Below are positions 837-37,314 of a DNA stretch of 44,885 nucleotides, piece after piece (position 1 is the stretch's first letter; each line of letters opens with the position of its first letter). The stretch is from an uncultured Clostridia bacterium (GTDB lineage: Bacteria > Bacillota > Clostridia > TANB77 > CAG-508): the NCBI GenBank assembly GCA_944387505.1, contig CALXFG010000015.1:1-44885 (forward strand), read 5' to 3'. The translations under genes were made by a program, and so were the position numbers. The notes under the pieces are model-generated. The model made no database searches and had not been told where the DNA came from. It worked only from the letters and a program-made list of their open reading frames with translations.

Positions 837-846
837 CTATTTTATG

Positions 847-1932: not shown

Positions 1933-1950
1933 TCTCTTCTCACCACTATC

Positions 1951-1979
1951 ATTTTATCAATAATTGCATTTAATATCAA
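1951..1979 (-). promoter_or_regulatory. Sigma-A-type promoter for the glycosyltransferase gene
   Basis: On the minus strand, -35 TTGATA (1974-1979), 17-bp spacer, -10 TAAAAT (1951-1956), about 20 bp ahead of the GTG start. No terminator is visible between trmFO and this site, so read-through from trmFO is also possible. Confidence 0.5.
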
Positions 1980-2027
1980 TATTGTCACACTCTTTTAATA
2001 TATCTGTAACTATTTTGTAATCAATCA

Positions 2028-3398: not shown

Positions 3399-3399
3399 A

Positions 3400-4224: not shown

Positions 4225-4265
4225 TTGATATATTCCTTTCTAAAAATTGTAACAATTAATTTATT

Positions 4266-17633: not shown

Positions 17634-17735
17634 CTTTTCTAGCCTCCACTATTTTCTTTTATTGTATGGAAATTTCTACTTGTATCTTCATCAAATATCA
17701 ATTTTTTCACATACAATAGATTTCATTTTTACTCT

Positions 17736-20253: not shown

Positions 20254-20290
20254 CTTTTTCACCCTTATTAATATTTTTTAAAACAAGGCA

Positions 20291-20596
20291 TTAATTTTCT
20301 ATTTCTGAAAAATATTCATTAATTCTATTGATTAATTCTTGTTTGGTTTCTTCCATTGTCATTCCCTCTACTTGTGCACCAGCTAACGTGATATGTCCGC
20401 CACCACCTAGTTTTTCTAATATAACTTGTACATTAATGTCTCCTATTGACCTTCCACTAATACAGATTTTATTTCCTACTTTTCCCATAACAAATGATGC
20501 TGTTATATCACTGATTGTTAATAATTCATCTGTTGCTTTTGCGCATATTAAACTCGTTTCTTTGTCTTTCCTTTCATAGGTTGCAATGGCAATGTA
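20291..20596 (-). pseudogene. Detached 3' end of gdpP (about 100 codons)
   Basis: This matches the last part of the intact gdpP (35171-35475) at roughly 90% DNA identity by eye, without gaps until its last few bases. The encoded residues TYERKDKETSLICAKATDEL... to FSEIEN differ from GdpP at only five of about 98 positions, and it keeps the DHHA1 motif GGGGHITLAGAQ and the same stop. It lacks everything upstream, including the DHH catalytic part, so it cannot be a working phosphodiesterase. A 65-residue frame from ATG 20488 exists but has no convincing ribosome site. Homology stops exactly where a family A palindrome starts (20597). Its position ahead of the rplI-side genes suggests it is the original gdpP tail. 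Confidence 0.9.
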
Positions 20597-20627
20597 TGTC
20601 GCATTGGGTTCGTTTGTCTGTGCGACA
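20597..20627 (+). repeat. Family A 31-bp palindrome at the gdpP-remnant boundary
   Basis: TGTCGC, 19 nt (ATTGGGTTCGTTTGTCTGT), GCGACA. It is nearly identical to the copy at 37284-37314 (two spacer differences). It begins immediately after the last base with gdpP homology. Confidence 0.9.
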
Positions 20628-20692
20628 TTTTCTCTGTATGGTATATTTTACATCATTTTTTCACTTTTTTCAACTAAAATTTGTAAAAATTA

Positions 20693-20742
20693 GGACCATT
20701 GGGGTCCATTGGTACCGGGTCCGTTTGGCCCCACCGCACATT
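20693..20742. repeat. Degenerate GC-rich palindrome related to family A
   Basis: GGACC-ATTGG-GGTCC (20693-20707) is overlapped by TGGGG (20700-20704) ... CCCCA (20729-20733). The inside contains GGGTCCGTTTGG, close to the GGGTTCGTTTGTC core of family A. It is a GC island in AT-rich DNA. Confidence 0.6.
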
Positions 20743-20777
20743 AAAAAGGCCTTTACTATTTTAGTAAAAGCCTTTTA
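20743..20777 (-). terminator. Terminator of the giant surface-protein gene
   Basis: On the minus strand, AAAAGGCTTTTACT pairs with AGTAAAGGCCTTTTT, then TTTTTAAT. It begins 11 bp after the stop at 20788. Confidence 0.85.
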
Positions 20778-20787
20778 TTTTATCCTG

Positions 20788-23700
20788 TTAATTTTCTTTT
20801 TTCTTGTAGGCAACGAATAGTCCTATGTTAACTGCTAATATAATTGATAATACCATCGTGATACTAGCTGTTAAGATGATTCTACCATTTGTGTCTAATC
20901 CTGTTGCTACTGTTATTATCATCTTTGATGTTGAGTGGTTATCGTCTTTATTGACATCTTCATATCCTGCTGGGTTGTTTTCTCCTGTTAAGATAACTAA
21001 GTTTTCTTTTTCTCCAAAGTTTTCTTCTCCTTTATTCCATCTTAGTACTATTTGAATTTCCTTGTATTCTCCTGGTTGAATGATGTTATCTTTTAGGGCA
21101 TCTGTCACAAATGTTCCATTTCTTTCTTCCCAATAAATATCATTGTCTTCTTGATAATAGCTATATCCTGCTGGGATAACTTCCACAATTTCTCCTGCTG
21201 TTCCTTCTATTTCTCCTGTATTGGTTACCCTAATTTTATATGATACTTTTACATCAGCCGTATCTGCTTTACTTCTATGGATGTCTACTACATACATTTC
21301 ATCTTTATTATTGATATTTCTTGCTCCTTGGCTGATTCCGTTTACATTAACATTTGATACCCATTTATCTATACTTAGGTTGAATATCTGTTTTTCATAA
21401 TAGTAGATAACTGTAATTTTCTCTTTTTCCATTGTTCCTTTATAGTTTTCTGTTCTTTCTACAAAGTTATAATATGGAATATCTTTTACTGATGTCTCAT
21501 AGTCATCTCCTATTAATCCCTCTAGCGTTTCACTTGGTGCTATTTCATATTCTGTTCCTTTTTCTAAGTATTTGACTTCGACTTCTGCTTTTCTTGCATA
21601 ATAGTATTTTACTACTATTTCTTCTTCTGTCATTTCTCCTGTACTATTTGATGGTTTTTCTACAAGCTCATATCCGTCAAATTCTTTTTCTTCTGTCTCA
21701 TAGCTATCTCCTATATGTCCCTTGTTTTCTTCTTCATCTAGTTTTTCTCCTGTTTGCTTGTCTATATACTCTACTTTTACTTTCGCTTGTTTGATATAGT
21801 AGTAGTTTACTACTATTTCTTCTTCTGTCATGGTTCCTTTTGCATTTTCTGGTAGCATATTGTCTCCTTCTGAATCTATCTCTACTAAGTCATATCCTTC
21901 AAATTCTCTTGATGGGATATCATATGGATCTCCTACATTTCCTTCATGCTTTTCAGTTGCTAATTTATTTCCTGTTGTGATATCTATATGATTTTCTATG
22001 ACTCCTCCTGCTACCTTTTTGTAGTAGTATATAACTTCTATTTCTGTATGATAGGTTCCGTCTGGATTTTTGGTTATTACCATGGTTCCTGTTGCATTTT
22101 CTGGTGTTTTTACTAGATTGTAGTCTTCTATTTCTTTGGCTTCTGTTTCATATTTATCATTTTCATGTCCTTCTATGATTTCTTCCTCTGCCAATACTTC
22201 GTTATCTGTTGTATCTTCTGGTGTATCATCTTCTTCTAAGTATTTTACGATAACTTTTGCTTTTTTGATATAATAGTATTTTACTTCAATTACTTCATCA
22301 CGTTTCATTTCTCCTTCTGCGTTGTCTGGTAATCTACTATTTCCTTCCTCATCTTCTGTTACTAAATCATATCCTTCAAATGCTTTTGATGGTATGTTAT
22401 ATGCGTCTCCTTCATTTCCTTGATGTTCTTCACTATATAACAATTCTCCTGTGATGTCGTCAATATGTTTTTCGATAACTCCTGCTGATACATGTGCATA
22501 ATAGTATATAACTACTTGCTCTCCTGTTTTATCCATAATGATATTTGGTTCTTCTGGACTTTCTACTAATACATATCCTTCAAAGTCTTCTGGATGTGTT
22601 TCAAATAGATCTCCTACTTTTCCTTCTTTGGTTTCCTCTTTTAGGATTTCTCCTGTTTCTCTATCTACATGTTGTACAGTTGCTTTTGTGTTTTGTGCAT
22701 AGTAGTAGATAACTTCTATAACATCTTTTGTCATTTGTCCACTTGTGTTTTCTGTATCTTTTACAAATGTATAATTATCTATTTCTTTTTGCTCTGTCTC
22801 ATAGTCTAATCCTTCATATCCAGAAATGACTATTTCATCTGCTAACACTAAGTTATCTGTATTATCGTCTGGTGTATCATCTTGTTCTAAGTATTTTACA
22901 ATAACTTTCGTGTTTTGTGCATAATAGTAAATAACTTCGATTGGATCTTTTGTCATGGTTCCTTCTGTGTTTTCTGTATCTTTTACCCATGTGTATCCTG
23001 GTATATCTTCTTTTACAGTTGTGTAATCTTTTCCAACATATCCATCAATCATTACTTCTGGTAGTAATACTGTATTATCACTATTATCATTTGGTGTATT
23101 ATCTTGCTCTAGATATTTTACGATAACATTCGTATTTGGAGCATAGTAGTAGATAACAATAATTTCATCTCTTTGCATTGTTCCTTCTAAGTTGTCTGTT
23201 GTTGCAACTAAGGTATATCCTGAAATTTCTTCTTCGACTGTTGTATAGTCTTTTCCTTCATATCCTTCAATTGTAACTTCTTTAGCTAATACCTTGTTAT
23301 CTGCTATATCTTCTGGTGTATCGTCTTGTTCTAAGTATTTTACAATGACCCTTGTATTTTTTGCATAGTAGTAAATTTTTTCTTGTGGTTCTGGTGTATA
23401 TATACCTGTTTTTTCTTCTGGTTCTTTCACCAAAGTATATCCTTCTATGTCTTTTTTATCTTCTGTTACATCAAATGGATCTCCTATAATTCCTTCTTTT
23501 GTTTTTCTATCTGATATCTCTTCTCCTGTATTGATATCCACATATTTTACCTCAACTGTTGATGGGATTTTTGTCATTGTATTTTTTATAATAGCTTCTT
23601 TTTCATCTATTGTTCCTACCTTATCTGTTACTTCTCCTATTTCTTTTTCATAGTTGAACAAGTCATTTTCCATTACTTCTTCTTCATCTACTGTATACTT

Positions 23701-26700
23701 AATTTCTTGTCCATTATCATCATATTTTGGTAAATCTACAAATGTAGCTGACCATTCCTCATCTTTTGTAACCACTGCAGAGTTAACCACTGTTTCTCCA
23801 TCTTTTACTTCCAATCTGATAGATACTGGTCTCTTCTCATAGGCATTGTCGTAGTCTATCCATTCTTTATACACTGTTATACTAATAGTATCTGTTGGTT
23901 TTGTAAATGTATTGGTAATGGTTGTTCCTTCTACTTTACTTGTATAGAAATATAGGTCTCCTGTTATTTTTTCTTCTTCCTCTACTGTGTAGTTGATAAT
24001 ATCATTATTCTCATCATATTTTGGTAAATCTTTAAATGTATATGTCCAAGTGTTTTCAGTTACTGTATCTGCTGTTTCTTCACTTAGTTCATATATTTGA
24101 TTGTCTTGTCCATTTGCTTTTAGAATAACTATGACACTTTCTGGTCTTCTTTGGGCTTGTATTGCATTATCTTCCCAAATCTTTGTCACTGGTACATCCA
24201 CTTTTGTTGTATCTTGTGTAAATGTATTGATGACTGTGGTTCCTTCTATTGATTTTCTATAGAATTGTAGGTCATTACTATTTACCTCTGTTTCATCTAC
24301 TGTATATACAATTTCTTGTCCATCTTCGTTGTATTTTTCTACATCTGTAAATGTGTATTGCCATGTGTTTGTATCTCCACTAACGGCATTTGATACATTC
24401 ACTTCTTGTTCTTTTACTGTTGCATTTCCATTTTTCAATTGTAACTTAATGCTTTCTGGACGTTTTCCTGCTTTGTCATTACTATCATTCCATACTTTTG
24501 TTACCGTTACTTCTGTTACATCATTTGGTTTTTCAAAAGTATTCGTTATCGTTACTTCTTTCGTGTTTTCGCCTGTGTTTTCCACAGTTCCTACACTAAT
24601 TGTGTAGAAATGTAAATCTCCTGGATTCTTTTCTTGCTCTTCTACTGTGTATTGGATTTCATTTCCTTGGCTATTGTACTTTTTCAAACCTGTAAATGTA
24701 TGACTGTTTTCTGTTGCCGTATTTAGTTCATATGTATCGATAACCTCTTCTGGATTTTGATTATCTGCATTTTCTGCCTTTACATTAATCACAATCGTTT
24801 CTGGTCTTCTTTGGGCTTGTATTTCGTTGTCGTTCCATACTTTATTCACCGTTAATTCGATTCTTTCATCTGGTACTGTAAATGTATTGGTGATTGTGTA
24901 ACCACTTGTCATATCTCCTGTAATGCCATCATTTGTATAGAATTTCAAGTCATCTGCATTTACTTCTGCTTCAGATGCTGTATATACAATTTCTTGTCCA
25001 TTCTCATCATATTTTGGTAAGTCTGTAAATGTATATGTCCAAGTGTTGGTGTCTCCTCCATTAGCATTATCTACATTAACGACTTGTTCTTTTACAACAC
25101 TTTCTCCGTTTTTTACTTGTAATTTAATGCTTTCTGGACGTTTTCCATTTGCATCATTGTTATCATTCCATACTTTGTTTACAGTTACCGTTGTTGTATC
25201 ATCCGGTTTTACAAAGTTATTTCTGATAGTTGCTTGATGATCTTCTACTGTTACAGGATTTTCTTCTGCTTCATAGAATTTTAGGTCTCCTTCTGTCTTT
25301 TCTCTTTCCTCTACTGTATATTCAATTTCTTGTCCATTGTCATCATATTTTTGTAATCCATCAATGATAATTGACCATTGATTTGTTGTTCCTTCTACCA
25401 TATCGTCTTTGGTAATTTCGACTGTTTTTACTTCTTGGTCTCCGTTTTTTACCACTAATGTTAGACTTTCTGGCCTTCTTTGGGCTTGTGTTTCATTATC
25501 ATTCCAGATTTTATTAACAATAATGCTAATTTCATCGTCTGGTCTTGTAAAGGTGTTTGTAATCGTTGCTTGTTTATGGTCTTTTTCACCTTCTACATCT
25601 GTTATTTCACTAACACTTGATGTATAGAAATGTAAATCTCCTAATGTTTTTTCTTGTTCTTCTATTCTATAGTTTATTTCATTTCCTTCACGATTGTATT
25701 TTGGTAAATCTGTAAATGTATGGCTTGTTTCTCCTTCTTTTACTTTTAAGTCGTAGCTTTGTACAACTCTATCATCTTCTCCAATGACATTGATGGTTAT
25801 CACGTCTGGTCTTCTTTGTGCTTGTGTTTCATTATCTTCCCATACTTTATTGACTGTAATATCCATTTTAAATTCTGTATTGGTTGTTGCTGTATTTGTT
25901 ACCTCTTCACTTGTTTTATCTGGAGTAAATAGTTTTACTTTTCCAGATACATTGTTTTCTATGGTTTCTTTTGATACATCCATATTTAGATATACCACTT
26001 TGATTGTTTTACTAATTTCAATATTTCCACTTTCAGGTGTTGTATATGTATCAATTCCATTTACTAATTCTACCCATGTAATGGTTTGATTTTCTTCATC
26101 ATATGTTCCACCATTTAAGCTAGATTTTGCTACATCGATTTTATATGGTAATGTATCGACAATTGTTACTTGTGCTTTTCCTATGTAGTTTTCAATGTTT
26201 GTTGTATAGGTAATTCCATATTCGATTTCTGCTTTTGGAGTATCAATACTTGATGTTGCTGTTTTAGAAATATTTTGATTTGTTACATTTGGATCTACCA
26301 ATCTATATTCATAGGTAACTTCTGTTAAGGTATCTACCATTGTTCCTTCCCAGTTGTCTGTTCTGGTTACATATTCATAATTTGCTGGTATTTCTTGACT
26401 TACTTCTGTTGTATAGCTATCTCCATATTTTCCTGTTCCATTTGCTGGAATTACAACATCTGGTGCAATTTGTTCTTTTGTGTCTGTGTCTATATGATGT
26501 ACGATGACACCTGCTGAGTCTTTGACTTTATAGTAGTATGTAACAACGGTTTCATTTTCTGTTAGTGTTCCTGTTGGATTTCCAGAAATACTTACTAACT
26601 CGTATTTTTCATCTATTCCAGTTGCCATACTTGTTGTATATTCTGAACCTCTATCTCTTTCTTCATTGATTTGATAAGCTTCTGAACCTGGTACAATCTC

Positions 26701-29700
26701 TTCTGTTCCTTCTATATAGTGATGTACGATGAATTTTGCAGGTGACTGTTTATAGAAGTAGATAACTTCTTGCACATCTTCTGTAAACTCACCACTTGCG
26801 TTGCTTGGTAATTCTTCCATTACCACTTCATAACCTTCTATATCTTTTGGTGCAGTTGTATAATTATCACCAATTTCTCCTACTAATGTTTCATCTTCTG
26901 CCAATGATTCATATGGTTCTGTTGTTCCATATTTATAGTGATGAACAATGACTGTTGAAACTGAATTACTAAATTGTACAACGACATGTTTATCACTTGT
27001 CATATTAACAAATTTATCTAATATGACACTTCCATCCTCTTCTGGTACAAATTCTATTTCTTCTCCATTTACGGTGATTTTTAGAATTTGGTATCCCTCT
27101 TCTGGTGTTATGACAATTTCTTTTGTACTATCTGATCCATCTTCTACAATTTCATATGGATTGTCAGCCGTTGAGCCTTGTCCTGATATACTTCCTCCTT
27201 CTCCTTCTACTTCTGTTGTGATTTTGTATTCTTTTTTATAGTTTTCTACAGTTAATTCTTGTTGTTCTGGGATTTCGGCTGAGATGGTGTTTTCTTGGAA
27301 TTTGGCAATTTGAGCTACATTGACACTATTTACTGTTGTACGTCCAACTTGAATATATTCTGTTTCATTGTTTAGTGGTTTGGTTACTGCTGCATATATC
27401 CCTTTATAGCTATATTCTATATTTAATTCAGCATCTAACTTATATGTATAATTAGCACCATTTAATATGTATCCATTGTCATTTGTATTGCTAATTTTAA
27501 CATTTCCTTGATATTCATGAGCATCTATTTGTTTAAAATTTTCAAACAAACCATCTTGGTTATATTTTATTAAAAATATATTATATCCTGGTGTACTTAC
27601 TTCTATTTCTTTGTTGTCTATAGTTTCTTCTGCTGGAATAATCATGGAGTTCGTCCAAACGCTTCTTATAGCAACAATATATCCACTATTTTTAGTATTA
27701 ATTACATCAAATCCATCAGCACAAAATTGATTAATAACATTAGCTGTACCCACTTTACCATTTTCGTTAAATTTTATAACAATTAATCCTCCACTTCCAT
27801 CTGTAATGGTTTTTATTATGGATTCATTTTTTTCAGTATCTTCTGCATTAATTGTAAAATCTCCCGGATCCACTCTACCAATAGCCACATACTCTCCATT
27901 AGATAAGCTTTCCACTCTCATAAATCCCTTTTGATTATTATATGTTAAAGCAATAGTTCGAATCCATTCTATTTTATCATCACTATTATATTTTAATATA
28001 ATTCCGTTTTGAGCACCTGTTACAGTAATATCTATAGCCATGCCATCAGCAGTATCTTCTGCCGGTATTGTCATATTAGCATTTACAAATCCTACTATAA
28101 CATAGCCATCTTCTGATTTAGAAATAGCATTGAATTTTTCAATACTTGTATTACTCAACTTGTTGACTTTGATAATTTTACCATCTTCATTAAATATGAT
28201 AGCCATAGCATTATAATTAGTATTTGCATTTGTTACTTGTATAGCTTCGTTATTTACAGTATCTTCTGCAGGTATTGTTATATTTCCACAATAATATCCA
28301 ACTGCTATATATTTATCATCAACTTTCTCAATGTCATTAATTACATCTCCATTGTTTGAACCTATATTGCTAATCCATTCTATTTTTCCTTCTGCATTAT
28401 ATTTTGTTATAAGGGCATCAGATTGTCCATTACTTAATAAATCAATGTCTTCCCCTGTTGATGTTTGTTCTCCATCAATATGTAATTTTCCTGTCATTTG
28501 TCCTACTGCAATTTGTCCACCATCACTTGTTGCAACTGCTGAATTATATTGTGAACTACTACTTACTTCACTTGATGCATATTCTACTAATCCATCACTG
28601 TTGTATATTAAGGTTGTGTTTCCTAATAACTCAACATCTTGACCTAATGTTGTTTGGTCACTTGGTATTATTGCTTTGACTGTTAGATATACTTGTACTA
28701 GGTATCTGTTGCTTGGTAATTCTGTAACTGATTTTATATTTGCATCAGTTTCCTCAGCAATACTACCAAATTGTCCTGCCCATTCTACCTTATTATCTTT
28801 ATTAAATTTTAAGACAAGATAATCTCTTGAGCCATTACTTGAAAGTTGTATTTCTTGGTTAGAGGCTGTTTGGTCTGCTTTAATACTACTAGCATTATCA
28901 TTAAATCTACCTACTTGAATATATCCATCATCTTTTGTTTCAGTTGATTTCACTGCGTGAGAAGTATAAGTTCCTGTATTATATCCTTCTGCCCACTCTA
29001 TCTTGCCATTTTCATTATATATAATATTGCAACTATTTCCCGATATACTCATACTTTTTCCATCTTGAGTTTGATCTGCTGATATCTCTAAAGAACCAGT
29101 TGCTAAATACCCATTTACAATATACTTATTTTCATTATTTACATCTATTGTATTAAATTTTTCGTTACTCCATGTTCCTCCTGGATATCCTACCCACTCT
29201 ATAAGACCTTCCTGATTATATTTTATTATAAATGGATCATTGTTTCCTGCGTTGGTTAATATTATTTCTTCGCCATTTACTGTTTCTTCAGTAGGTATTA
29301 TTAAATTACTTGTTAAAAAGTATCCTACAACTATAATATTACCATCTTTATCTACCTCAAAATCATTGATTTTATCTTCTGCATCTCCTCCTATACTTCT
29401 AGCCCATTCCACTTTATGTTCTGAGTTATATTTAATTAGTATAGCATCAAAGCTACCTCTACTTTCAAATACTATTTCTTCATTATTTACTGTAGCTTCA
29501 GCAGGGATCGTTTTTGTTTCACTAAAGTTTTCAATTTCCACAAATCCGCCATCACTTGTTTCTTTTATATTTATTTGTCCTGGATTTGTTACCCTATCCG
29601 TCAATTCTATATATTCATTTAATAAGTTTCCAGAATCATTATATTTTATATGAATTTTAGTAGCCCCTTTTGCTCCTGAAACCACATATTCATTTGAATC

Positions 29701-32700
29701 TGTCTTTGTGATAGAATAAAAATAATCATGACCTCCTGATACATATGTATTACTCCATACAATTTTATTATTACTATTGTATTTAATAATAACAGCGTCA
29801 CTATTAGCATTTGTTGATGTTAATACTAATTCCTCTCCACTCTCTGTTTCATCTGCGTCAAATTTTACTGTTCCTTTAAAAAATCCTATCTTAATATACC
29901 CACCATCATCTGTTGCAATAGAATCTGTATAACTAATCTCTCCATTACCTTCGAAACTTTGACTCCATAATTCTACCATTTCTTTTACTGCTGGTTTTGT
30001 TTTTCCAATTCCAAAGAAATAGGTTCTGTCTTGTTCATTTTCTGGTAATTGGTATCCTTCGGCAGTTTCTATTTCCACTACCTTGTAATATCCTTCTGGT
30101 AAGTCTTCCGTAATTCTTCCTTGTTCGTCTGTTGTGATAACTTGGTATGTTTTATCATCTATTTGTACTGTTTCTCCTATCACTTCTCCTTTACTATTTA
30201 CTGCTTGTGTTTCTGTTCCATCATCTTCTACTTTTGTAATAGCAAATTTTACATTTGGCAATGGTTCTTGTGTTTCTCCATCGATTTTGGTTAGGCTAAA
30301 TAATGGTTCATTATCTAGCGCAATTTCCATATAGTTTCCAGTAACACTGACACATTTATCATCTATAATATTACCATCTTTATCTATTACTGGTACACTT
30401 ACTAATCCAAATGTACTAGTTCCTTCTTCTCCTTCTTGAATATCTGTTACTGGTCTTATGTCTCCTGTATTAAAGTCCTCTAATGCTTTAATTTCTCCCT
30501 CTAATATTTGTAAATATGAACCTCCTTCTTCATCTTTTTTTACTACAAATTTTACTGTATTATCACTTAATGCATATCCTGCTGGTGGCATAACTTCTTC
30601 TATGGTATATTCTATACCTTCATATAATGGTCCTACCTCTAATTCTCCATATTCATCTGTTGTATACTCATTATCCAACCATTTTCCTGTTACTCTAAAT
30701 ACTGCTCCTTCTAATGGAATTGGTGTTTCTTTTTCAAATTTGTCTAAGTATAAATAATATTCATCTAATTTTGTATTCACAATACTTGCACTCATAATTG
30801 GTTGTTTTTCTTGTGTGTTGTCTACTGTAGGTTGTGTTTTAAAACTTCCTTCTATCACTTGTGCTTCTAGCTCATTTCCATTCCATACAGTTTTAAATTT
30901 GATTGGTGCTTCACTGTATTCGTATCCTTCTGCATATACCTCTTTCAATGTATATTCTTCATTTGGATATAGTCCTGTTATGGTAAGTTCACCTTTGCTG
31001 TTTGTTGTTACCGTTCTTCCTGTTGTTGGTAAACCTTTTCCTATTAAATTAAATCTAACACCTGGTACTAAATTTCCATATTGGTCCTCTTTTGTTAATT
31101 TAAATGTGTATTTAGGCTCATTGGTTACAGTAAAGCTTACTTTTGCTGGTTCTTCTTCTGTTGCTTGCTCTACATTTAGATTGCTATTTCCTTCCAATCT
31201 TTCTACTTGTAAATCTCCATTGTCATCTACTGTTGTTGTAAATTTAATTGTTTCACCATTTAATACATAATCACTTGGTGCTTTTATTTCTTTTACTGTA
31301 TATACTTTTCCTACATACAAATCTTGTATGTTAATTTTTCCTTGTGCATCACTTGCAATAATTCTTGAGCTTTCTTCTCCTTCTTCTTGTACACTAAATG
31401 ATGCTCCTTGAATTGGGCTATTGGTTCCTTGTTTTACTTTATTAATTTCTAAATTGTATTTTCTTGCTATTTTAAATCCTAGTTTATTCGTCTCTGTTTG
31501 GTCTGCTAATTTTCCTTCATCTGTTTCTAAATAGAAATATACGGCATGTGTTGAATAACTTACATCATTGTAGTTTACATCTTGTGGTACTTCTATTTCA
31601 TAAGTACAAATATATTCTTCACTTTTTTCTACTACATAATCTCTTAAATCAATTGCATAAGTTCTGATTTTTGAAAAATCTGTGATTTCATCTGCTGTTT
31701 TCCAGTTGTTACTGCTATCGTTTAAATCACTATTGACTGTTTCATTTTCTGAATAATATACAGTTGCAATTCCTTGTAAGTTTTCTGGAAGTTCTATTGG
31801 TCCTGTCATTTTTGCTGTAAATGTTGAACCTAGATTGTTTCCTAATACTTGTGATGTATTTCCTGCAAATGGTGTTTTTCCTACTACGATAATTCCACTG
31901 ATATTTCCAGAATAGTTATTGGTAATTTGTACACTGATTTTTGCTGTTCTATTATTTTGTGTTTTATCAATTTCTGCTACTTGTGGTGCTACGGTTGTCT
32001 TTATTTCGTCTCCTTCTTCATTATAGTCTGACGCTGTTTCTGTTGTTAAAAGGGTTGAAGGTCCTACAAATGTAATTGATTTTTTACTATAGTCTACTAA
32101 ATCTTGTGTATTTCCATCCCCATTGATATCATAGATATCTTGTGCTCTTAAAGTATCTTTATAGTTATTACATTCTTCATTATAGGCATATAATTCAATA
32201 TCTTTTGTTGCTGATATTTTTCTTGGGTCTGGTGTGATATTGGCATCTACTGTGATTGTATAATTTTCTGGATTTTCATTTTCTGTTAATATTTTTAGAA
32301 AATAGTTTCCGTCTTGTTCATATATATCATATCCAAGTATGCTCACATTTCCATTGTTTATGGTAATATCGTTTATATCTGCTACTAGCACTTCTTCTGG
32401 AAATTTTAATAAAAATGTTCCATTTTTCCATGATTCCACATTATATCCCAAGTTTACAGTTCCTATATTTATTTTCATATTGGTTGTTTCTTGTGTAGAC
32501 AATGTTGTAGGTGTCACACTTGAGATTTGTGCCATTGATAATGGTTCATCATAGTTGGCGATTCCTGTGTCATCTTTTAATTTTTGATATTCTTCCTCTT
32601 CACTATATTTTGCATATCCACTTAAGTATGAATAGATTTTACTTAGTTGATTAAATTCTTCTCTTATTTTATCTGTTGTTAATTGGGCATTATTCATTTC

Positions 32701-34494
32701 TTTAATGCTTGTTGCTGTAAAACTACTTACTCTTTCTGCTTGACTTGTTTCTATTCTGATATGGTCTATTGGTGTGCTGTAATAATATGGATTTTCTTTT
32801 GTATAATTTTCCCAATCTTCACTTGTAAATTCATGGATTAATTCATCTGTTTCATCATTATATACACGTATCCATCCATTTTCTCCAAACATAGCTCCTG
32901 GTGTTGTAAAATAGATTCCTATATTTTTGCTGTATGGTAACATATCTTCATATGTTCCATCTGTTTTTTGGAATTTATCTGTATAGTTGGTGTCTTGCTC
33001 TCTTAATTGTACATTTGCTATTTCTCCTGAGTTTCCTCTTGATACATACCATCTTACTTCATAGGTATCTTTTGTGTCATCTTGGACTTGGTTATAGTAT
33101 TTGACTGCATTTTCTTTTGACACAACATATACATTATATGGATTTCCTACCCATGTTCCCACTTGTACATCATACCCTATAACATCTCCTCCACCTCTTT
33201 CATATGTTACGGTTATGATATCTTCTGCTGTGTTACTGATGTATGGGTTATTAAATTCTTCATTTTGATTGTTATATCCTTCAAATGTTGCTTTTACTGG
33301 TATATTTAATATCACTGTTCCATTTGCTTGTTCATATGCTTCTAATGGATAGGTTACTTTTAGCTTGTATTCGCTATATCTTGCTGTACCCCAGCTTGAT
33401 GTATAGGCTTCTTTAGTTACTACTCCATCTTCTCCTATTGTTGCTTCTCTATATGCTGTAAAGTTTCCTGTTTCTTCTTCATAACTGTATTGTACATTAT
33501 CTCCTGTTATTTCTACTTTTGTTGGTTTATATCCATTTAATTCTGGAATTGTTCCCTCAATTGTTGATTTTTTTAATAATAATTTATTATTGCTTTCTTG
33601 TGATACAATTTTAAATTCTAGATTTACTTCTTGGTTTTCTTCATCTACGATACTTTCTGTGTTGTAATTTTGGTATTTATTTTTTTCTGCATTTGATCCA
33701 TATGTGTATGGTATTTCTGCTTTTGTTGTTCCATACCAATCTACTGGTACTTCTATTTCTTTCTTTATTTGTGTTTCTGTTCCGTCATTTTTTACATGTG
33801 TTCCTGTTAATGTTATTTTGTTAATTCCACTATATTTGTTTGTATCTTTTCCTATGGCATCTCTTTTGCTACTTGTATATCGATAATCTCCTGAACGCAC
33901 TTGTCCAAAGATTAGCTTTTGTGTTCCTGCTTGTACTTGTTTTAGATTGATCGTTGTTGTATTTTCACTTATGTAGTTTCCATCTATAACTTCATCATCT
34001 ACTAATGCTGTTTTAAAATATATATTATCTGCTTCAATTTCAATTTTTGCGTCTTTTAGATATCCATCTTCAAGCACGTTTAAGCTCATGTAAAGTGTGT
34101 CTTCTCCTTCCACCTCTTTACATGTTCCTTTTACTTTATCAGCATAACCATCCCCATTTAAATCTCTGGCAAAATACACACTAAACCTTACATTTTCACT
34201 TTGTGTTTCTTCATCCTTTTCTGTTACTTCTCCATATGTCATTGCTCTTGCAAGTTCTGGATTTGTTGCAATTAGATTTCTTCTTTTTTGTGTTTCATTT
34301 GCATGATAAATAGCAGTCATTACCATTGTAATAATTGCTAATACTGCTATCGTGCTTGATATCACTTTTTCTTTATTTTGCACAATAGCTGTTTTTAAAT
34401 TACGCATGCCTAATGCAAGTTTTTGGTGTATTAAAGTTTTGTGTGCTAAATTGCCTTTTTCTTTGCCATTTTTGCCATTAAAACTTTTCTTCAT
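20788..34494 (-). CDS. Giant multidomain surface protein (4568 residues; SpaA, beta-propeller, MucBP and Cna-B repeats)
   Basis: The N-terminus is basic with one hydrophobic segment (about 44-66), acting as signal or anchor. Residues about 70-1010 form a beta-rich adhesin head with Asp/Asn-rich calcium-type loops such as DLNGDGYADK. About 1010-1500 are four SpaA/prealbumin-like Cna domains. About 1505-2400 are twelve related beta-propeller-like repeats ending in KYNxxGKIEW. A short InlB-B-like domain and three MucBP-type repeats follow. About 2875-3645 are seven Cna-B domains with VNKVW, YTVEE and ITNTF, the residues that form internal isopeptide bonds in this family. About 3645-4370 are ten more MucBP-like repeats, then a DUF11-like domain and a C-terminal membrane helix ending AYKKKEN. 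No LPXTG motif is seen, so it is probably held by the membrane helix. The likely role is adhesion to mucus or other cells. ATG 34494 follows GGTGAG; the promoter is uncertain. Confidence 0.93.
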   Translation of the reverse strand: MKKSFNGKNGKEKGNLAHKTLIHQKLALGMRNLKTAIVQNKEKVISSTIAVLAIITMVMTAIYHANETQKRRNLIATNPELARAMTYGEVTEKDEETQSENVRFSVYFARDLNGDGYADKVKGTCKEVEGEDTLYMSLNVLEDGYLKDAKIEIEADNIYFKTALVDDEVIDGNYISENTTTINLKQVQAGTQKLIFGQVRSGDYRYTSSKRDAIGKDTNKYSGINKITLTGTHVKNDGTETQIKKEIEVPVDWYGTTKAEIPYTYGSNAEKNKYQNYNTESIVDEENQEVNLEFKIVSQESNNKLLLKKSTIEGTIPELNGYKPTKVEITGDNVQYSYEEETGNFTAYREATIGEDGVVTKEAYTSSWGTARYSEYKLKVTYPLEAYEQANGTVILNIPVKATFEGYNNQNEEFNNPYISNTAEDIITVTYERGGGDVIGYDVQVGTWVGNPYNVYVVSKENAVKYYNQVQDDTKDTYEVRWYVSRGNSGEIANVQLREQDTNYTDKFQKTDGTYEDMLPYSKNIGIYFTTPGAMFGENGWIRVYNDETDELIHEFTSEDWENYTKENPYYYSTPIDHIRIETSQAERVSSFTATSIKEMNNAQLTTDKIREEFNQLSKIYSYLSGYAKYSEEEEYQKLKDDTGIANYDEPLSMAQISSVTPTTLSTQETTNMKINIGTVNLGYNVESWKNGTFLLKFPEEVLVADINDITINNGNVSILGYDIYEQDGNYFLKILTENENPENYTITVDANITPDPRKISATKDIELYAYNEECNNYKDTLRAQDIYDINGDGNTQDLVDYSKKSITFVGPSTLLTTETASDYNEEGDEIKTTVAPQVAEIDKTQNNRTAKISVQITNNYSGNISGIIVVGKTPFAGNTSQVLGNNLGSTFTAKMTGPIELPENLQGIATVYYSENETVNSDLNDSSNNWKTADEITDFSKIRTYAIDLRDYVVEKSEEYICTYEIEVPQDVNYNDVSYSTHAVYFYLETDEGKLADQTETNKLGFKIARKYNLEINKVKQGTNSPIQGASFSVQEEGEESSRIIASDAQGKINIQDLYVGKVYTVKEIKAPSDYVLNGETIKFTTTVDDNGDLQVERLEGNSNLNVEQATEEEPAKVSFTVTNEPKYTFKLTKEDQYGNLVPGVRFNLIGKGLPTTGRTVTTNSKGELTITGLYPNEEYTLKEVYAEGYEYSEAPIKFKTVWNGNELEAQVIEGSFKTQPTVDNTQEKQPIMSASIVNTKLDEYYLYLDKFEKETPIPLEGAVFRVTGKWLDNEYTTDEYGELEVGPLYEGIEYTIEEVMPPAGYALSDNTVKFVVKKDEEGGSYLQILEGEIKALEDFNTGDIRPVTDIQEGEEGTSTFGLVSVPVIDKDGNIIDDKCVSVTGNYMEIALDNEPLFSLTKIDGETQEPLPNVKFAITKVEDDGTETQAVNSKGEVIGETVQIDDKTYQVITTDEQGRITEDLPEGYYKVVEIETAEGYQLPENEQDRTYFFGIGKTKPAVKEMVELWSQSFEGNGEISYTDSIATDDGGYIKIGFFKGTVKFDADETESGEELVLTSTNANSDAVIIKYNSNNKIVWSNTYVSGGHDYFYSITKTDSNEYVVSGAKGATKIHIKYNDSGNLLNEYIELTDRVTNPGQINIKETSDGGFVEIENFSETKTIPAEATVNNEEIVFESRGSFDAILIKYNSEHKVEWARSIGGDAEDKINDFEVDKDGNIIVVGYFLTSNLIIPTEETVNGEEIILTNAGNNDPFIIKYNQEGLIEWVGYPGGTWSNEKFNTIDVNNENKYIVNGYLATGSLEISADQTQDGKSMSISGNSCNIIYNENGKIEWAEGYNTGTYTSHAVKSTETKDDGYIQVGRFNDNASSIKADQTASNQEIQLSSNGSRDYLVLKFNKDNKVEWAGQFGSIAEETDANIKSVTELPSNRYLVQVYLTVKAIIPSDQTTLGQDVELLGNTTLIYNSDGLVEYASSEVSSSSQYNSAVATSDGGQIAVGQMTGKLHIDGEQTSTGEDIDLLSNGQSDALITKYNAEGKIEWISNIGSNNGDVINDIEKVDDKYIAVGYYCGNITIPAEDTVNNEAIQVTNANTNYNAMAIIFNEDGKIIKVNKLSNTSIEKFNAISKSEDGYVIVGFVNANMTIPAEDTADGMAIDITVTGAQNGIILKYNSDDKIEWIRTIALTYNNQKGFMRVESLSNGEYVAIGRVDPGDFTINAEDTEKNESIIKTITDGSGGLIVIKFNENGKVGTANVINQFCADGFDVINTKNSGYIVAIRSVWTNSMIIPAEETIDNKEIEVSTPGYNIFLIKYNQDGLFENFKQIDAHEYQGNVKISNTNDNGYILNGANYTYKLDAELNIEYSYKGIYAAVTKPLNNETEYIQVGRTTVNSVNVAQIAKFQENTISAEIPEQQELTVENYKKEYKITTEVEGEGGSISGQGSTADNPYEIVEDGSDSTKEIVITPEEGYQILKITVNGEEIEFVPEEDGSVILDKFVNMTSDKHVVVQFSNSVSTVIVHHYKYGTTEPYESLAEDETLVGEIGDNYTTAPKDIEGYEVVMEELPSNASGEFTEDVQEVIYFYKQSPAKFIVHHYIEGTEEIVPGSEAYQINEERDRGSEYTTSMATGIDEKYELVSISGNPTGTLTENETVVTYYYKVKDSAGVIVHHIDTDTKEQIAPDVVIPANGTGKYGDSYTTEVSQEIPANYEYVTRTDNWEGTMVDTLTEVTYEYRLVDPNVTNQNISKTATSSIDTPKAEIEYGITYTTNIENYIGKAQVTIVDTLPYKIDVAKSSLNGGTYDEENQTITWVELVNGIDTYTTPESGNIEISKTIKVVYLNMDVSKETIENNVSGKVKLFTPDKTSEEVTNTATTNTEFKMDITVNKVWEDNETQAQRRPDVITINVIGEDDRVVQSYDLKVKEGETSHTFTDLPKYNREGNEINYRIEEQEKTLGDLHFYTSSVSEITDVEGEKDHKQATITNTFTRPDDEISIIVNKIWNDNETQAQRRPESLTLVVKNGDQEVKTVEITKDDMVEGTTNQWSIIIDGLQKYDDNGQEIEYTVEEREKTEGDLKFYEAEENPVTVEDHQATIRNNFVKPDDTTTVTVNKVWNDNNDANGKRPESIKLQVKNGESVVKEQVVNVDNANGGDTNTWTYTFTDLPKYDENGQEIVYTASEAEVNADDLKFYTNDGITGDMTSGYTITNTFTVPDERIELTVNKVWNDNEIQAQRRPETIVINVKAENADNQNPEEVIDTYELNTATENSHTFTGLKKYNSQGNEIQYTVEEQEKNPGDLHFYTISVGTVENTGENTKEVTITNTFEKPNDVTEVTVTKVWNDSNDKAGKRPESIKLQLKNGNATVKEQEVNVSNAVSGDTNTWQYTFTDVEKYNEDGQEIVYTVDETEVNSNDLQFYRKSIEGTTVINTFTQDTTKVDVPVTKIWEDNAIQAQRRPESVIVILKANGQDNQIYELSEETADTVTENTWTYTFKDLPKYDENNDIINYTVEEEEKITGDLYFYTSKVEGTTITNTFTKPTDTISITVYKEWIDYDNAYEKRPVSIRLEVKDGETVVNSAVVTKDEEWSATFVDLPKYDDNGQEIKYTVDEEEVMENDLFNYEKEIGEVTDKVGTIDEKEAIIKNTMTKIPSTVEVKYVDINTGEEISDRKTKEGIIGDPFDVTEDKKDIEGYTLVKEPEEKTGIYTPEPQEKIYYYAKNTRVIVKYLEQDDTPEDIADNKVLAKEVTIEGYEGKDYTTVEEEISGYTLVATTDNLEGTMQRDEIIVIYYYAPNTNVIVKYLEQDNTPNDNSDNTVLLPEVMIDGYVGKDYTTVKEDIPGYTWVKDTENTEGTMTKDPIEVIYYYAQNTKVIVKYLEQDDTPDDNTDNLVLADEIVISGYEGLDYETEQKEIDNYTFVKDTENTSGQMTKDVIEVIYYYAQNTKATVQHVDRETGEILKEETKEGKVGDLFETHPEDFEGYVLVESPEEPNIIMDKTGEQVVIYYYAHVSAGVIEKHIDDITGELLYSEEHQGNEGDAYNIPSKAFEGYDLVTEDEEGNSRLPDNAEGEMKRDEVIEVKYYYIKKAKVIVKYLEEDDTPEDTTDNEVLAEEEIIEGHENDKYETEAKEIEDYNLVKTPENATGTMVITKNPDGTYHTEIEVIYYYKKVAGGVIENHIDITTGNKLATEKHEGNVGDPYDIPSREFEGYDLVEIDSEGDNMLPENAKGTMTEEEIVVNYYYIKQAKVKVEYIDKQTGEKLDEEENKGHIGDSYETEEKEFDGYELVEKPSNSTGEMTEEEIVVKYYYARKAEVEVKYLEKGTEYEIAPSETLEGLIGDDYETSVKDIPYYNFVERTENYKGTMEKEKITVIYYYEKQIFNLSIDKWVSNVNVNGISQGARNINNKDEMYVVDIHRSKADTADVKVSYKIRVTNTGEIEGTAGEIVEVIPAGYSYYQEDNDIYWEERNGTFVTDALKDNIIQPGEYKEIQIVLRWNKGEENFGEKENLVILTGENNPAGYEDVNKDDNHSTSKMIITVATGLDTNGRIILTASITMVLSIILAVNIGLFVAYKKKEN
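21385..23565 (-). repeat. Ten MucBP-like repeats in the giant protein
   Basis: Each unit is about 65-80 residues and ends with IYYYA or a close variant. Three neighbours start VIVKYLEQDDTP or VIVKYLEQDNTP and are nearly identical, pointing to recent duplication. Boundaries are approximate. Confidence 0.8.
23565..25875 (-). repeat. Seven Cna-B repeats in the giant protein
   Basis: Units of about 100-110 residues begin with VNKVWNDN-like strands and end ITNTF. Two subtypes occur: QAQRRPE (units 1, 2, 4, 6) and GKRPESIKLQ (units 3, 5, and 7 in diverged form). Confidence 0.85.
27290..29985 (-). repeat. Twelve beta-propeller-like repeats in the giant protein
   Basis: Units of roughly 70-80 residues contain DGGYI-x-VG, IPAEETVN-type loops and a closing KYNxxGKIEW. 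Similar repeats build beta-propellers in other secreted proteins. The count is from the KYN/KFN/IYN motif. Confidence 0.7.
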
Positions 34495-34707
34495 ATTTGC
34501 TCACCGTTTCCTTTCCTTGTATGCTGTAAGTATATATTTTATTTTAATATACTAGAGACTGTAAGTAAATATGTCGAAGGCTGTCAAATTTTGGCTTATT
34601 TCATCTTATTTTACGGATTCTTAGCATCCGAGAACTTTTATGTAATATTATATTTATTTTACAATTGTTTTACATCTGTGTAATTATTCGTGTTTTTCAC
34701 TAGGGAA

Positions 34708-34792
34708 TGTCGCATTGAGATCATTTTTGTCCTTTTGGGATCGTTTTTGTTTGGGACATTTGGGACATTTGGGATCGTTTTTGTTTGGGACA
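34708..34792 (+). repeat. Degenerate cluster of family A palindrome pieces
   Basis: It starts TGTCGCATTGAGATC and contains two copies of GGGATCGTTTTTGTTTGGGA followed by CA, plus an extra TTTGGGACA. It looks like two or three family A copies collapsed by partial duplication, upstream of the giant gene. Confidence 0.7.
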
Positions 34793-34865
34793 TTTTTCTT
34801 TTTTAATTCCAATTTTTGGTTGTAGTATTAGTGTACTTTTTTGCTATCTGATTTTTTCTTTTTGA

Positions 34866-35112
34866 GTAACTATTTAGTGGAGAGGTATTTATTATTAAAA
34901 GAGTTCTTGAATATTTATTTTTTATAAATGACGAATGTGATTGGAGTGCTTGTAGCCTTTCTTATTAGAAAAAAAATGAGGAAGCGCGATAGAGCGAGAG
35001 GCTCGTTTCTTTTATAATTAGAAAGGCTAGAGCACGTATTGAGCCGAGGAATTTATTAAAAATAAATATTCAAAAACTCATAATTAGAAATTTTATACCA
35101 CTGAATAGTTAC
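34866..35112. mobile_element. MITE-like imperfect inverted repeat, 247 bp
   Basis: The left end GTAACTATTTAGTGG matches the inverted right end CCACTGAATAGTTAC with one mismatch. Inner blocks (TTGAATATTTATT, TAGCCTTTCT) are also inverted. The centre at about 34980-35005 is GC-richer (GCGCGATAGAGCGAGAGGC). It is non-coding. Together with the palindromes at 34708 and 35140 it fills most of the 676-bp space between gdpP and the giant gene. Confidence 0.65.
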
Positions 35113-35139
35113 CTTGTTGATAATTTTTGTTTAAGAAAA

Positions 35140-35170
35140 TGTCGCATAAGGATCTGATCCCAATGCGACA
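35140..35170 (-). repeat. Family A 31-bp palindrome touching the gdpP stop
   Basis: TGTCGC, 19 nt, GCGACA, directly adjoining the TTA (stop on the minus strand) of intact gdpP at 35171. Its spacer holds a nested GGATC-t-GATCC. Confidence 0.88.
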
Positions 35171-37195
35171 TTAATTTTCTATTTCTGAAAAATATTCATT
35201 GATTCTATTGATTAGTTCTTGTTTTGTTTCTTCCATTGTCATGCCTTCTACTTGTGCACCAGCTAGAGTAATATGTCCTCCACCACCTAGCTTTTCTAAT
35301 ATAATTTGTACATTAATATCTCCTATTGATCTTCCACTAATACAAATTTTATTTCCTGCTTTTCCCATAACAAATGATGCAGTTATATCACTAATGGTTA
35401 ATAACTCGTCTGCTGCTTTTGCACATATTAGGCTTGCTTCTTTATCTTTTTTCTCATATGTTGCAATAGCTATTGTATCATTAACAATTTCTGCTTTTTT
35501 CACAATTGCTGCAATTTTATTAAATGTTTCTAAATTACTTTGGAACCATTTTTTTACTCTAATGATATTGACACCACATCTACGTAAATATGCAGCTGCT
35601 TCAAATGTTCTAACACCTGTTTTAAATGTGAAGTTCTTCGTATCCATCATAATTCCTGCATACAAGCTTTCTGCCTCAATGGTTTTTAAATCTACATGTA
35701 CTTCTGCATATTGTAATAACTCTGTTACCAATTCTGCTGCAGATGAAGCATATACTTCTTGGAACGTTAATGTTGCATTTTCTATATAATCGGTACTTCT
35801 TCTATGATGGTCTATAATAACAATTTTATCTGTTCTATTTAATAATTCTGGCGCTTCTACATAGGTCGTTTTATGGGTATCTACAATAACCACTAATGTT
35901 TCTTTATCAATATTTTCTTCTGCTACCTCTTTTGAAATTAATATATCTTCATATTCCGCTTCTTTTGCTAAATCTGCTTTAAAGCTTTGTAATGTATTTG
36001 TTTCATTACTATCAATAATATATGCTTTTTTCCCTAAACTTTTTGTTAATCGATAAATTCCCATGCTAGATCCCATAGAATCTATATCTGGATTTGTATG
36101 TCCCATAATCATAACTTTACTTGCATCTTTTATTAAATTCTCTAATGCATGTGCTACAACTCTTGCTTTTACCTTTGTCCTTTTTTCTACTTCTTGGGCT
36201 CTTCCACCATAGAATTTATAGATTTCGTTTTCTCTAATGACTGCTTGGTCTCCTCCACGTCCTAAGACAACATCCATCGCTGCTTGTGCTGATTTGTATT
36301 TTTCTTTGTCTGTCATACCGTCATTTGAGATTGCTATACTTAATGTGATTTGTACATTTTCCTTTGTTTTAATATCTTTTACTTTATCTAAAATACTAAA
36401 TTTATCTTCTTTTACTTTTTCAAAATATCTTTGTTCAAATAAATAAACATATCTATCTCTATCAGATTTTATTAATACTCCATTACTTTTATCTGTCCAT
36501 TCATAAATACATTTATCAATTTCCGCAATAACTTGTGGCTTTTCTTCACTTTCTAGCTGTTGCATGGTTTCTTCATAATTGTCTATCATGATAATGGTTA
36601 TACATGATTTTGAATCTTTGTATTCTTCTTTTAATTTGACGATTTCTGTTTCGTCTATAAAGTATAACATTATCATATATTTATCAGCATGTCTCTTATC
36701 ATATTTTCTTGAATGCACAAATTTTCCTAATACTTCATAGTTTTTATTGTTTAATTCAATATGCTTTGAAATTTCTTTTTCTTTTGAATCATCCTTTTCT
36801 ATTTCTTTTATATCTAATTTGATGTCATCAATTAAATTGGTTAAATATTGGTTAATATCAAATCCTTCAAATTCAGATATGAATTTTGCACTTCTCCATA
36901 TGACATTTCCATTTGATTCCATAATAATTAATGGGAATGGAGAATTAATTAAGCTACTTTTAGCAGCTGTATCTACTGATAAGGTTAAGTCCTGTAATGT
37001 TTCTGATATCTCACTTTTTCTTCTATTATTAGCATAATATGAATATGCAACAACCGCCATAAATATCAATATGGCTGGTATGATCATAATCGCATTTTCT
37101 ATACAAACTATGACTAACAATATAAATATAATTGCTAAATATATCTTTGTTTTTGATAATAATTTATCAAAAACTTTTCTATTTGTATTTTGCAT
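35171..37195 (-). CDS. gdpP: Cyclic-di-AMP phosphodiesterase GdpP
   Basis: A 674-residue membrane protein that hydrolyses c-di-AMP and so affects wall and osmotic homeostasis. Two membrane segments lie in residues 14-52, followed by a degenerate PAS-like domain, then a degenerate GGDEF domain (GRGGDQAVI near 313-321) that should not make c-di-GMP. The DHH domain begins at MGHTNPDIDSMG (about 364) and contains VDTHKT and IDHHRRS; the DHHA1 domain ends in GGGGHITLAGAQ near 636. Motifs are complete. It has its own promoter (37228-37256) and an AGGAGA site. Its last 100 codons have a second, diverged copy 14.9 kb away, and its stop codon touches a palindrome. I suspect the present 3' end was brought in with the giant gene. 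Confidence 0.95.
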   Translation of the reverse strand: MQNTNRKVFDKLLSKTKIYLAIIFILLVIVCIENAIMIIPAILIFMAVVAYSYYANNRRKSEISETLQDLTLSVDTAAKSSLINSPFPLIIMESNGNVIWRSAKFISEFEGFDINQYLTNLIDDIKLDIKEIEKDDSKEKEISKHIELNNKNYEVLGKFVHSRKYDKRHADKYMIMLYFIDETEIVKLKEEYKDSKSCITIIMIDNYEETMQQLESEEKPQVIAEIDKCIYEWTDKSNGVLIKSDRDRYVYLFEQRYFEKVKEDKFSILDKVKDIKTKENVQITLSIAISNDGMTDKEKYKSAQAAMDVVLGRGGDQAVIRENEIYKFYGGRAQEVEKRTKVKARVVAHALENLIKDASKVMIMGHTNPDIDSMGSSMGIYRLTKSLGKKAYIIDSNETNTLQSFKADLAKEAEYEDILISKEVAEENIDKETLVVIVDTHKTTYVEAPELLNRTDKIVIIDHHRRSTDYIENATLTFQEVYASSAAELVTELLQYAEVHVDLKTIEAESLYAGIMMDTKNFTFKTGVRTFEAAAYLRRCGVNIIRVKKWFQSNLETFNKIAAIVKKAEIVNDTIAIATYEKKDKEASLICAKAADELLTISDITASFVMGKAGNKICISGRSIGDINVQIILEKLGGGGHITLAGAQVEGMTMEETKQELINRINEYFSEIEN

Positions 37196-37283: not shown

Positions 37284-37314
37284 TGTCGCATTAGGTTCGT
37301 TTGTCTATGCGACA
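37284..37314 (+). repeat. Family A 31-bp palindrome upstream of gdpP
   Basis: TGTCGC, 19 nt, GCGACA, flanked by GGAACCATTGGGG on the left and a second degenerate palindrome (GGAACC ... GGTCACA) to about 37358 on the right. Confidence 0.88.

What the first reader, a model, noticed from the sequence alone, without database searches (positions are those of the whole stretch)
20289..37195. Giant surface-protein gene inserted in gdpP, with gdpP rebuilt
Seen: about 300 bp of the gdpP 3' end occurs twice as direct repeats, 14.88 kb apart, around the 13.7-kb giant gene. The copies are about 90% identical, but the proteins differ at only about five of 98 positions, so most changes are silent. Known: gdpP-rplI-dnaB is a common Firmicutes order. 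Inference: the detached copy next to the rplI side is the original tail. The giant gene arrived on DNA carrying a related strain's gdpP tail and entered by one crossover, which rebuilt the gene. A fresh tandem duplication would not give 10% silent divergence.
Basis: partly seen in the sequence, partly recalled or inferred. Interest (0 to 1): 0.88.

Follow-up and report, generated by a model that had tools for sequence, protein, structure and literature searches.

The report
Foreign gdpP tail wedged before rplI
A gut bacterium's genome carries a leftover piece of a housekeeping gene from another species, most likely dragged in when a two-gene cassette recombined into a spot that already held a giant surface-protein gene; an ordinary kind of event at an unusually busy site.

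Summary
In detail: 303 bp of the gdpP 3' end occurs twice, 14.88 kb apart, 89.1% identical, 33 differences, five amino-acid changes. The divergence is ordinary between-species divergence. gdpP is not interrupted; the giant gene lies in the gdpP-rplI gap, as in G036 and G152, which show one gdpP tail. In the window the rplI promoter motif and a leader hairpin lie between giant gene and detached tail, 2477 bp from rplI; in 14 of 30 relatives' loci with rplI the motif is 55-137 bp upstream of it. So the extra piece is the detached tail plus two genes (a phosphodiesterase and a nucleotidyltransferase-like gene), wedged between rplI and its promoter. rplI is a mosaic: bases 1-213 100% to G047, bases 196-506 99.4% to G036. 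Best model: donor DNA "gdpP tail-pde-p296-rplI start" entered by one homologous crossover in rplI and one nearly homology-free join at a hairpin. The tail tree is unresolved; no donor genome was found; polarity stays inferred. The gdpP-rplI gap is a cargo hotspot in this genus (24 of 104 measured gaps are 900 bp or more).

The parts
35171..37195 (-). intact gdpP (c-di-AMP phosphodiesterase family; GGDEF_GdpP, DHH, DHHA1), 674 aa
35171..35473 (-). tail of intact gdpP (copy 1 of the direct repeat)
35140..35170 (-). 31-bp palindrome TGTCGCA-N17-TGCGACA followed by T residues, directly after the gdpP stop (terminator-like)
20788..34494 (-). giant surface-protein gene, 4568 aa, SpaA/Cna_B/MucBP repeats, C-terminal hydrophobic segment and basic tail
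   Evidence: orthologues after gdpP in G036, G047, G152
20645..20673 (-). rplI promoter-like motif (TTGAAA-17-TAAAAT); its surroundings are 55-137 bp upstream of rplI in 14 of 30 relatives' loci, here about 2.48 kb upstream
20597..20627 (-). 31-bp leader palindrome; the detached tail begins three bases from its edge
20291..20593 (-). detached gdpP tail (copy 2), open to the gdpP stop; foreign
19123..20262 (-). pde: type I phosphodiesterase / nucleotide pyrophosphatase family gene, 379 aa; part of the newcomer
18220..19110 (-). p296: 296 aa, weak pol-beta nucleotidyltransferase match (E = 0.0075, below Pfam's cut-off); part of the newcomer
17970..18182 (-). rplI bases 1-213, 100% identical to G047
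17677..17987 (-). rplI 3' part and most of the rplI-dnaB spacer, 99.4% identical to G036
16299..17633 (-). dnaB, conserved flank

Best explanation
The locus is a recombinant of two arrangements. Arrangement 1, gdpP - giant gene - rplI promoter/leader - rplI, was probably the resident. Arrangement 2, gdpP - pde - p296 - rplI from another species of the genus, was the donor. A donor fragment beginning inside gdpP and running through pde and p296 into rplI entered the resident chromosome. One end was fixed by a homologous crossover inside rplI, about 200 bp from its start. The other end was joined with little or no homology at the edge of the 31-bp hairpin in the rplI leader. This left the foreign gdpP tail as a dead 303-bp remnant, kept the resident's own gdpP, giant gene and rplI promoter, and placed pde, p296 and rplI behind that promoter. 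Shown: the repeat, its mostly silent divergence, the displaced promoter motif, the rplI mosaic, the single-tail giant arrangement in relatives. Inferred: the arrangement-2 donor (not seen in any genome), which side was resident, linear incoming DNA, promoter activity, the order of events.
For: (1) gdpP-giant-rplI with a single tail in G036 and G152; gdpP-giant to the contig end in G047. By eye, the promoter motif lies directly upstream of rplI on contigs of G047, G086 and G137 too, in G137 and G086 after surface-type ORFs. (2) The motif was found once in each of 14 of 30 loci with rplI, always 55-137 bp upstream of it, and in none of 5 loci without rplI; in the window it occurs once, 2477 bp upstream, on the giant side of the detached tail (gdpP-sense strand, up to 5 substitutions). 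(3) rplI mosaic: 15 differences to G036 in bases 1-195 and 2 in 196-505 (Fisher p = 2.6e-5, break chosen after looking). Among 25 relatives, where their loci reached, over 22.7 kb, four near-identical tracts were found; two lie back to back directly after the insertion. (4) Of 33 differences, 12 fall on the detached side, 3 of them non-synonymous; 73% expected if neutral, P = 7e-4. It diverged mostly as a working gene elsewhere (11 unpolarised sites set aside). (5) Tail-to-tail identity equals between-species identity. (6) pde and p296 occur as a pair at other places in two other genomes. (7) No N in the window; the left junction shares about 3 nt and the two parental rplI tracts overlap by 18 bp, too short for a usual assembler join (inference).
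Against: No genome with gdpP-pde-p296-rplI was found. pde was sought in 210 genomes including the own; 57 have a match at E <= 1e-20, and the best outside the own genome, G195 (66%), has it on another contig than gdpP and rplI. The tail tree does not resolve and does not reject the two tails as sisters (AU p = 0.64). The 100% match of rplI 1-213 is to G047, which itself carries the giant gene and whose gdpP tail is only about 90-91% like the detached one, so the donor's identity does not fall out simply. G000-G036 identity in the giant gene is 86-88% by DNA over the two long aligned parts, with one near-identical 200-bp tract, so the G036 likeness right of the insert does not continue on its left. 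The two histories are formally symmetric; the rplI mosaic and the fragment size favour this one. Metagenome-type assembly in 65 contigs, no reads to check.
Confidence: 0.6

Rival explanations
1. Reversed polarity, close to the first reader: the resident was gdpP-pde-p296-rplI (detached tail original). DNA with gdpP-giant-rplI leader from a G036/G047-like donor came in with a homologous crossover in or before gdpP and an illegitimate join of its leader hairpin to the resident gdpP tail; the resident gdpP was replaced, not mended.
For: Same anatomy by symmetry; the giant family is itself mobile: 41 of 210 genomes (own included) match its first 400 residues at E <= 1e-15, and in G034 and G038 it lies on other contigs than gdpP and rplI.
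Against: Needs an imported stretch of about 14 kb or more against about 2.6 kb. The rplI 3' part and spacer on the far side of the insert are like G036, a giant-carrying species. No near-identical tract to any of 25 relatives was found in gdpP, nor upstream of it as far as their loci reached; with no donor sampled this is weak.
Confidence: 0.22
2. Campbell-type integration: a circular molecule carrying gdpP tail and giant gene integrated by a single crossover in the tail, giving two hybrid tails.
For: A single crossover with a circle duplicates the homologous stretch and keeps gdpP whole.
Against: Needs a circle in which a giant gene is followed by an rplI leader joined to a gdpP tail; the one long ORF between the tails is the giant gene, with surface-repeat domains only; in G036 and G152 the giant gene follows gdpP with no second tail.
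Confidence: 0.06
3. Duplication of the gdpP tail within this lineage followed by long divergence.
For: The AU test does not reject the two tails as sisters (p = 0.61 and 0.64).
Against: On the detached side 9 of 12 changes are silent where neutral decay predicts about 27%, P = 7e-4. The copies are 89.1% identical to each other, no more than to other species (detached tail 92.1% to G205). It does not explain pde-p296 or the displaced promoter motif.
Confidence: 0.05
4. Assembly chimera.
For: 65 contigs, 93.9% complete, 2.2% contamination; no reads available.
Against: No N in the window; the two sides share about 3 nt at the left junction and the two rplI tracts overlap by 18 bp, below usual assembly word lengths (recalled).
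Confidence: 0.07

Closest known systems
Homology-facilitated illegitimate recombination (HFIR), reported for S. pneumoniae, A. baylyi, P. stutzeri and E. coli (PMC3240628; abstract and passages seen)
   Same: one homologous end (rplI) and one end without real homology; insert of about kb size
   Different: inferred from one genome, not observed; about 3 nt at the junction where 3-10 bp micro-homology is usual; any deletion in the resident is of unknown size
Displacement arrays of T6SS effector-immunity genes in Vibrio cholerae, compared there with Rhs loci (PMC5361080; abstract parts and passages seen)
   Same: incoming module joined through a conserved flank, leaving an orphaned gene or gene part; HFIR proposed there too
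   Different: there the remnant is the resident's displaced gene; here it is most likely the donor's housekeeping-gene tail, and no toxin-immunity pair was recognised
REP palindromes and REP-associated tyrosine transposases (PMC2817692, PMC3733652; starts of abstracts in a search listing only)
   Same: 31-bp palindrome, 23 copies in the genome; 6 of 6 distinct copies examined outside the window lie outside ORFs of 90 aa or more; four Y1_Tnp matches in the genome, one in this window
   Different: low copy number; no cognate pairing shown; mobility not shown

Membership tests
HFIR product | homologous crossover at one end | tested here: inconclusive
   rplI is a two-source mosaic with the switch at about bases 196-213, but the sources are not proven donor and resident
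HFIR product | illegitimate join, usually with 3-10 bp micro-homology, at the other end | tested here: inconclusive
   three bases (TAC) between hairpin edge and clear gdpP homology; this strain's leader before insertion is unknown
HFIR product | RecA dependence, linear incoming DNA | not testable with these tools
   ComEC and DprA family matches are present, but both families also match in 10 and 11 of 14 control genomes and prove no competence
Fresh tandem duplication | near-identical copies | tested here: not met
   89.1% identity
Giant gene inserted into gdpP | gdpP coding sequence split by the insert | tested here: not met
   gdpP is complete at 35171-37195 and the giant gene lies beyond its stop, as in G036 and G152
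Transposon insertion with target-site duplication | short identical direct repeats plus a transposase within the insert | tested here: not met
   the repeat is 303 bp and 89%; the one long ORF between the tails matches SpaA, Cna_B, MucBP and, below cut-off, CarboxypepD_reg
REP element (31-bp palindrome) | repeated intergenic palindrome with a cognate Y1 transposase | tested here: inconclusive
   23 copies, none for the reversed control; 6 of 6 distinct copies examined outside long ORFs; single half-motifs near one of four Y1_Tnp genes, none near the other three

The most novel reading that the evidence does not exclude
The gdpP-rplI gap is a genus-wide exchange site in which giant surface-protein genes are swapped between species by recombination in the conserved flanks, under selection to keep the rplI promoter next to rplI or its new operon; and the 31-bp palindromes, one of which marks the illegitimate junction to within 3 nt, act as break or join points, possibly through the Y1 (REP-type) transposases encoded in the genome, one of them just beyond dnaB.
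Probability: 0.15. Interest if true: 0.62.

Novelty: new member of a known kind. Interest (0 to 1): 0.36.

Why it matters
It shows, at base resolution in an uncultured gut Clostridia genus, how DNA from another species can be joined into an operon with only one homologous side, leaving a datable fossil of the donor's housekeeping gene. It also points to a compact site, gdpP-rplI, where cargo such as giant surface proteins is gained and replaced between species, which can be followed across the 210 species genomes held.

Tried and rejected
Phylogeny of the two tails: 36 rows (both tails and 34 of 209 relatives), then 34 rows after dropping G156 and G093, which gave very long branches. Polytomy both times; AU p = 0.61 and 0.64 for the two tails as one clade, 0.52 for the detached and 0.48 for the intact tail with G205+G073. 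Per-gene identity tables of 27 relatives show a star-like radiation at about 90% DNA and name no donor. Defence-system models: no match for pde or p296. A second tail match counted for G133: the one G133 contig fetched holds one whole gdpP; the place of the other match was not listed and was not followed. Papers: a search for gdpP, rplI and insertion gave 3 papers, seen in listing only, none apparently on such a site; one for giant surface proteins at hotspots gave 3, none apparently related; one on illegitimate recombination with orphan or truncated genes gave 25, 12 listed, led by PMC5361080. I considered the palindromes at 35140 and 20597 as terminal repeats of one mobile element carrying the giant gene. 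The sequences around the giant gene in G036, G047 and G152 do not show such fixed ends, the palindrome occurs 23 times in the genome and often looks like a terminator, so I dropped it as the main reading.
Full report
What is there. The direct repeat is real. Intact gdpP is 35171-37195 (-), 674 aa, with GGDEF_GdpP, DHH and DHHA1 domains. Its last 303 nt recur at 20291-20593 (-), in frame to the stop with no internal stop. The two differ at 33 of 303 nt, 26 of them in synonymous codons, and at 5 residues. Between them lies the 4568-aa giant ORF 20788-34494 with Cna_B, MucBP and SpaA domains. The finding did not mention that two genes separate the detached tail from rplI: a type I phosphodiesterase family gene (pde, 19123-20262) and a 296-aa gene with a weak pol-beta nucleotidyltransferase match (p296, 18220-19110; E = 0.0075, below the Pfam cut-off).

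Relatives. The window lies in a 1.86-Mb, 65-contig genome; 210 genomes of its genus, the own included, could be searched. In the 20 relatives' regions first fetched, gdpP is followed within 1 kb by rplI in 14, at 2.9-13 kb in three (G005, G091, G058), by the giant gene in two (G036, whole, about 1.1 kb after gdpP, then rplI; G047, to the contig end), and in one (G086) the fetched stretch shows no rplI. G152 also has gdpP-giant-rplI-dnaB. G036 and G152 each show one tail. A DNA search of 210 genomes, which scored three candidates per genome, counted two matches in G000 and G133 and at most one in the rest; the G133 contig fetched holds one whole gdpP and its other match was not followed.

Gap sizes. 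In 104 of these, gdpP and rplI could be measured on one contig; 17 were on different contigs or not listed, 5 were rearranged. Of the 104 (own included), the median gap is 154.5 bp; 24 are 900 bp or more, 11 are 2 kb or more, 6 are 7 kb or more. Large gaps hold giant surface-type genes in G000, G036 and G152 and in G058 (3299 aa) and G129 (2240 aa), both with Listeria-Bacteroides repeats, and a 702-aa gene with one such repeat in G068. Others hold different genes: an N-6 DNA methylase match in G199, radical SAM and metallo-beta-lactamase family genes in G091; of the 14 ORFs scanned from such gaps or their contigs, 5 gave no Pfam match. G137 (SpaA, Cna_B, MucBP) and G086 (DUF11) carry surface-type ORFs upstream of rplI on contigs that do not reach gdpP. 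So the gap is a cargo site and the giant gene is one of several cargoes.

Which piece is extra. A motif matching AAAATGATGTAAAATATACCATACAGA with up to five substitutions lies 55-137 bp upstream of rplI in 14 of 30 loci with rplI, and at no other place on that strand in the 35 loci searched; 16 of the 30 do not show it at that stringency. In the window it occurs once, with no mismatch, 2477 bp upstream of rplI, between the giant gene and the detached tail. It overlaps a promoter-like sequence TTGAAA-17-TAAAAT at 20673-20645, one of 21 such matches in the 2.7 kb scanned against 19.1 in shuffles, so the score alone means nothing; its conserved place does. In G036 the same motif and similar hairpins lie directly between the giant gene and rplI, and by eye the motif is also upstream of rplI on the G047, G086 and G137 contigs. 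Hence the tail and the two genes stand between the rplI promoter motif and rplI, downstream of an otherwise normal gdpP-giant-leader order.

The right edge. Bases 1-213 of rplI are 100% identical to G047; bases 196-506 (rplI end and most of the spacer) are 99.4% identical to G036, while the other relatives aligned match bases 448-500 at 55% or less, gaps counted as mismatches. A scan of 25 relatives over 16001-38700, where their loci reached, found four such near-identical tracts: these two, a 122-bp tract in dnaB (G138) and a 200-bp tract in the giant gene (G036). Differences to G036 are unevenly spread (15 of 195 against 2 of 310, p = 2.6e-5), but I placed the break after seeing the data. 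That G047 also carries the giant gene, while its gdpP tail is not especially close to the detached one, speaks against a simple donor assignment.

The left edge. Clear gdpP homology begins three bases from the edge of a 31-bp palindrome at 20597-20627. That palindrome family has 23 copies in the genome, against none for the reversed pattern, and two copies fold well as single DNA strands (z = -4.1 and -8.1).

Age and source of the tail. Tail identity between the copies, 89.1%, is ordinary for pairs of related species: 105 pairs among 15 close relatives average 90.2%, range 84.8-98.3. The best match of the detached tail is G205 at 92.1%; of the intact tail, G073 at 91.7%. Using 22 of the 34 collected relatives to polarise the 33 differences, 12 fall on the detached side (3 non-synonymous), 10 on the intact side (none) and 11 are undecided (2 non-synonymous); 73% non-synonymous is expected without selection, P = 7e-4 for the detached side. 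The tail therefore diverged mainly as part of a working gdpP in another lineage. The three detached-side residue changes, at bases invariant in those 22 relatives, fit a short time as a dead fragment. The tree is a polytomy and cannot place either tail.

The cassette. Of 57 genomes with a pde-like match (own included), one other, G195, reaches 66%; the other listed matches are at 40% or less. pde and p296 stand side by side in G195 and in one chicken-gut Clostridia record. In the latter the pair lies after a gene that reads like prfA (by eye) and is flanked by an 85-bp direct repeat, 82 of 85 identical, which is itself nearly palindromic. So the pair occurs in three different settings.

Mechanism. 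The simplest history is entry of a fragment gdpP tail-pde-p296-rplI start into a gdpP-giant-rplI chromosome, anchored by homology in rplI and joined almost without homology at the leader hairpin. This is the pattern of homology-facilitated illegitimate recombination (abstract and passages of PMC3240628), and a similar process has been proposed for retained genes in Vibrio T6SS clusters (passages of PMC5361080). The recombinant keeps gdpP, the giant gene and a promoter for rplI. The mirror history, with the giant side coming in, is not excluded; I give it 0.22. ComEC and DprA family genes are present, which permits but does not show natural transformation.

Verdict. Observation confirmed; interpretation partly right. 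An ordinary kind of recombination event with unusually clear footprints, at a site that is a cargo hotspot in its genus.

Noticed in passing
window 15402-16181 (-): Y1_Tnp (IS200/REP-type transposase) family gene right after dnaB, one of four Y1_Tnp matches in the genome; hairpins of the GTTGCCAAA-GGGGACG type lie on both sides, near 16283 and 15211, and a third near 38659 beyond rpoC.
   Followed up: partly
window near 15211, inside ORF 14265-15389 (-): One of these GTTGCCAAA hairpins lies in frame within an ORF that reads like tilS (SGGPDS motif, recalled, not searched), adding residues such as SCQNGTSPLATF: a palindrome inside a coding gene.
   Followed up: no
window 20597-20627, 35140-35170, 37284-37314 and 20 further places in the genome: 31-bp palindrome family TGTCGCA-N17-TGCGACA with two main core types, 23 copies; two copies bracket gdpP.
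   Followed up: partly
L165 about 4640-7030: pde-p296 pair flanked by an 85-bp, 96% identical, near-palindromic direct repeat in a chicken-gut Clostridia record.
   Followed up: partly
L166 (G195) 640-5930: pde-p296 pair beside a gene reading like a VirD4/TraG coupling protein and a P-loop kinase-like gene, upstream of genes reading like sbcD-sbcC-prfA (names by eye, not tested).
   Followed up: no
L160 (G034) and L161 (G038): Giant-gene relatives 75% and 72% identical on contigs other than those of gdpP-rplI, so the giant family is mobile.
   Followed up: partly
L054 3314-13213, L178 1116-7838: Giant proteins of another repeat type (3299 and 2240 aa) between gdpP and rplI in G058 and G129.
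   Followed up: partly
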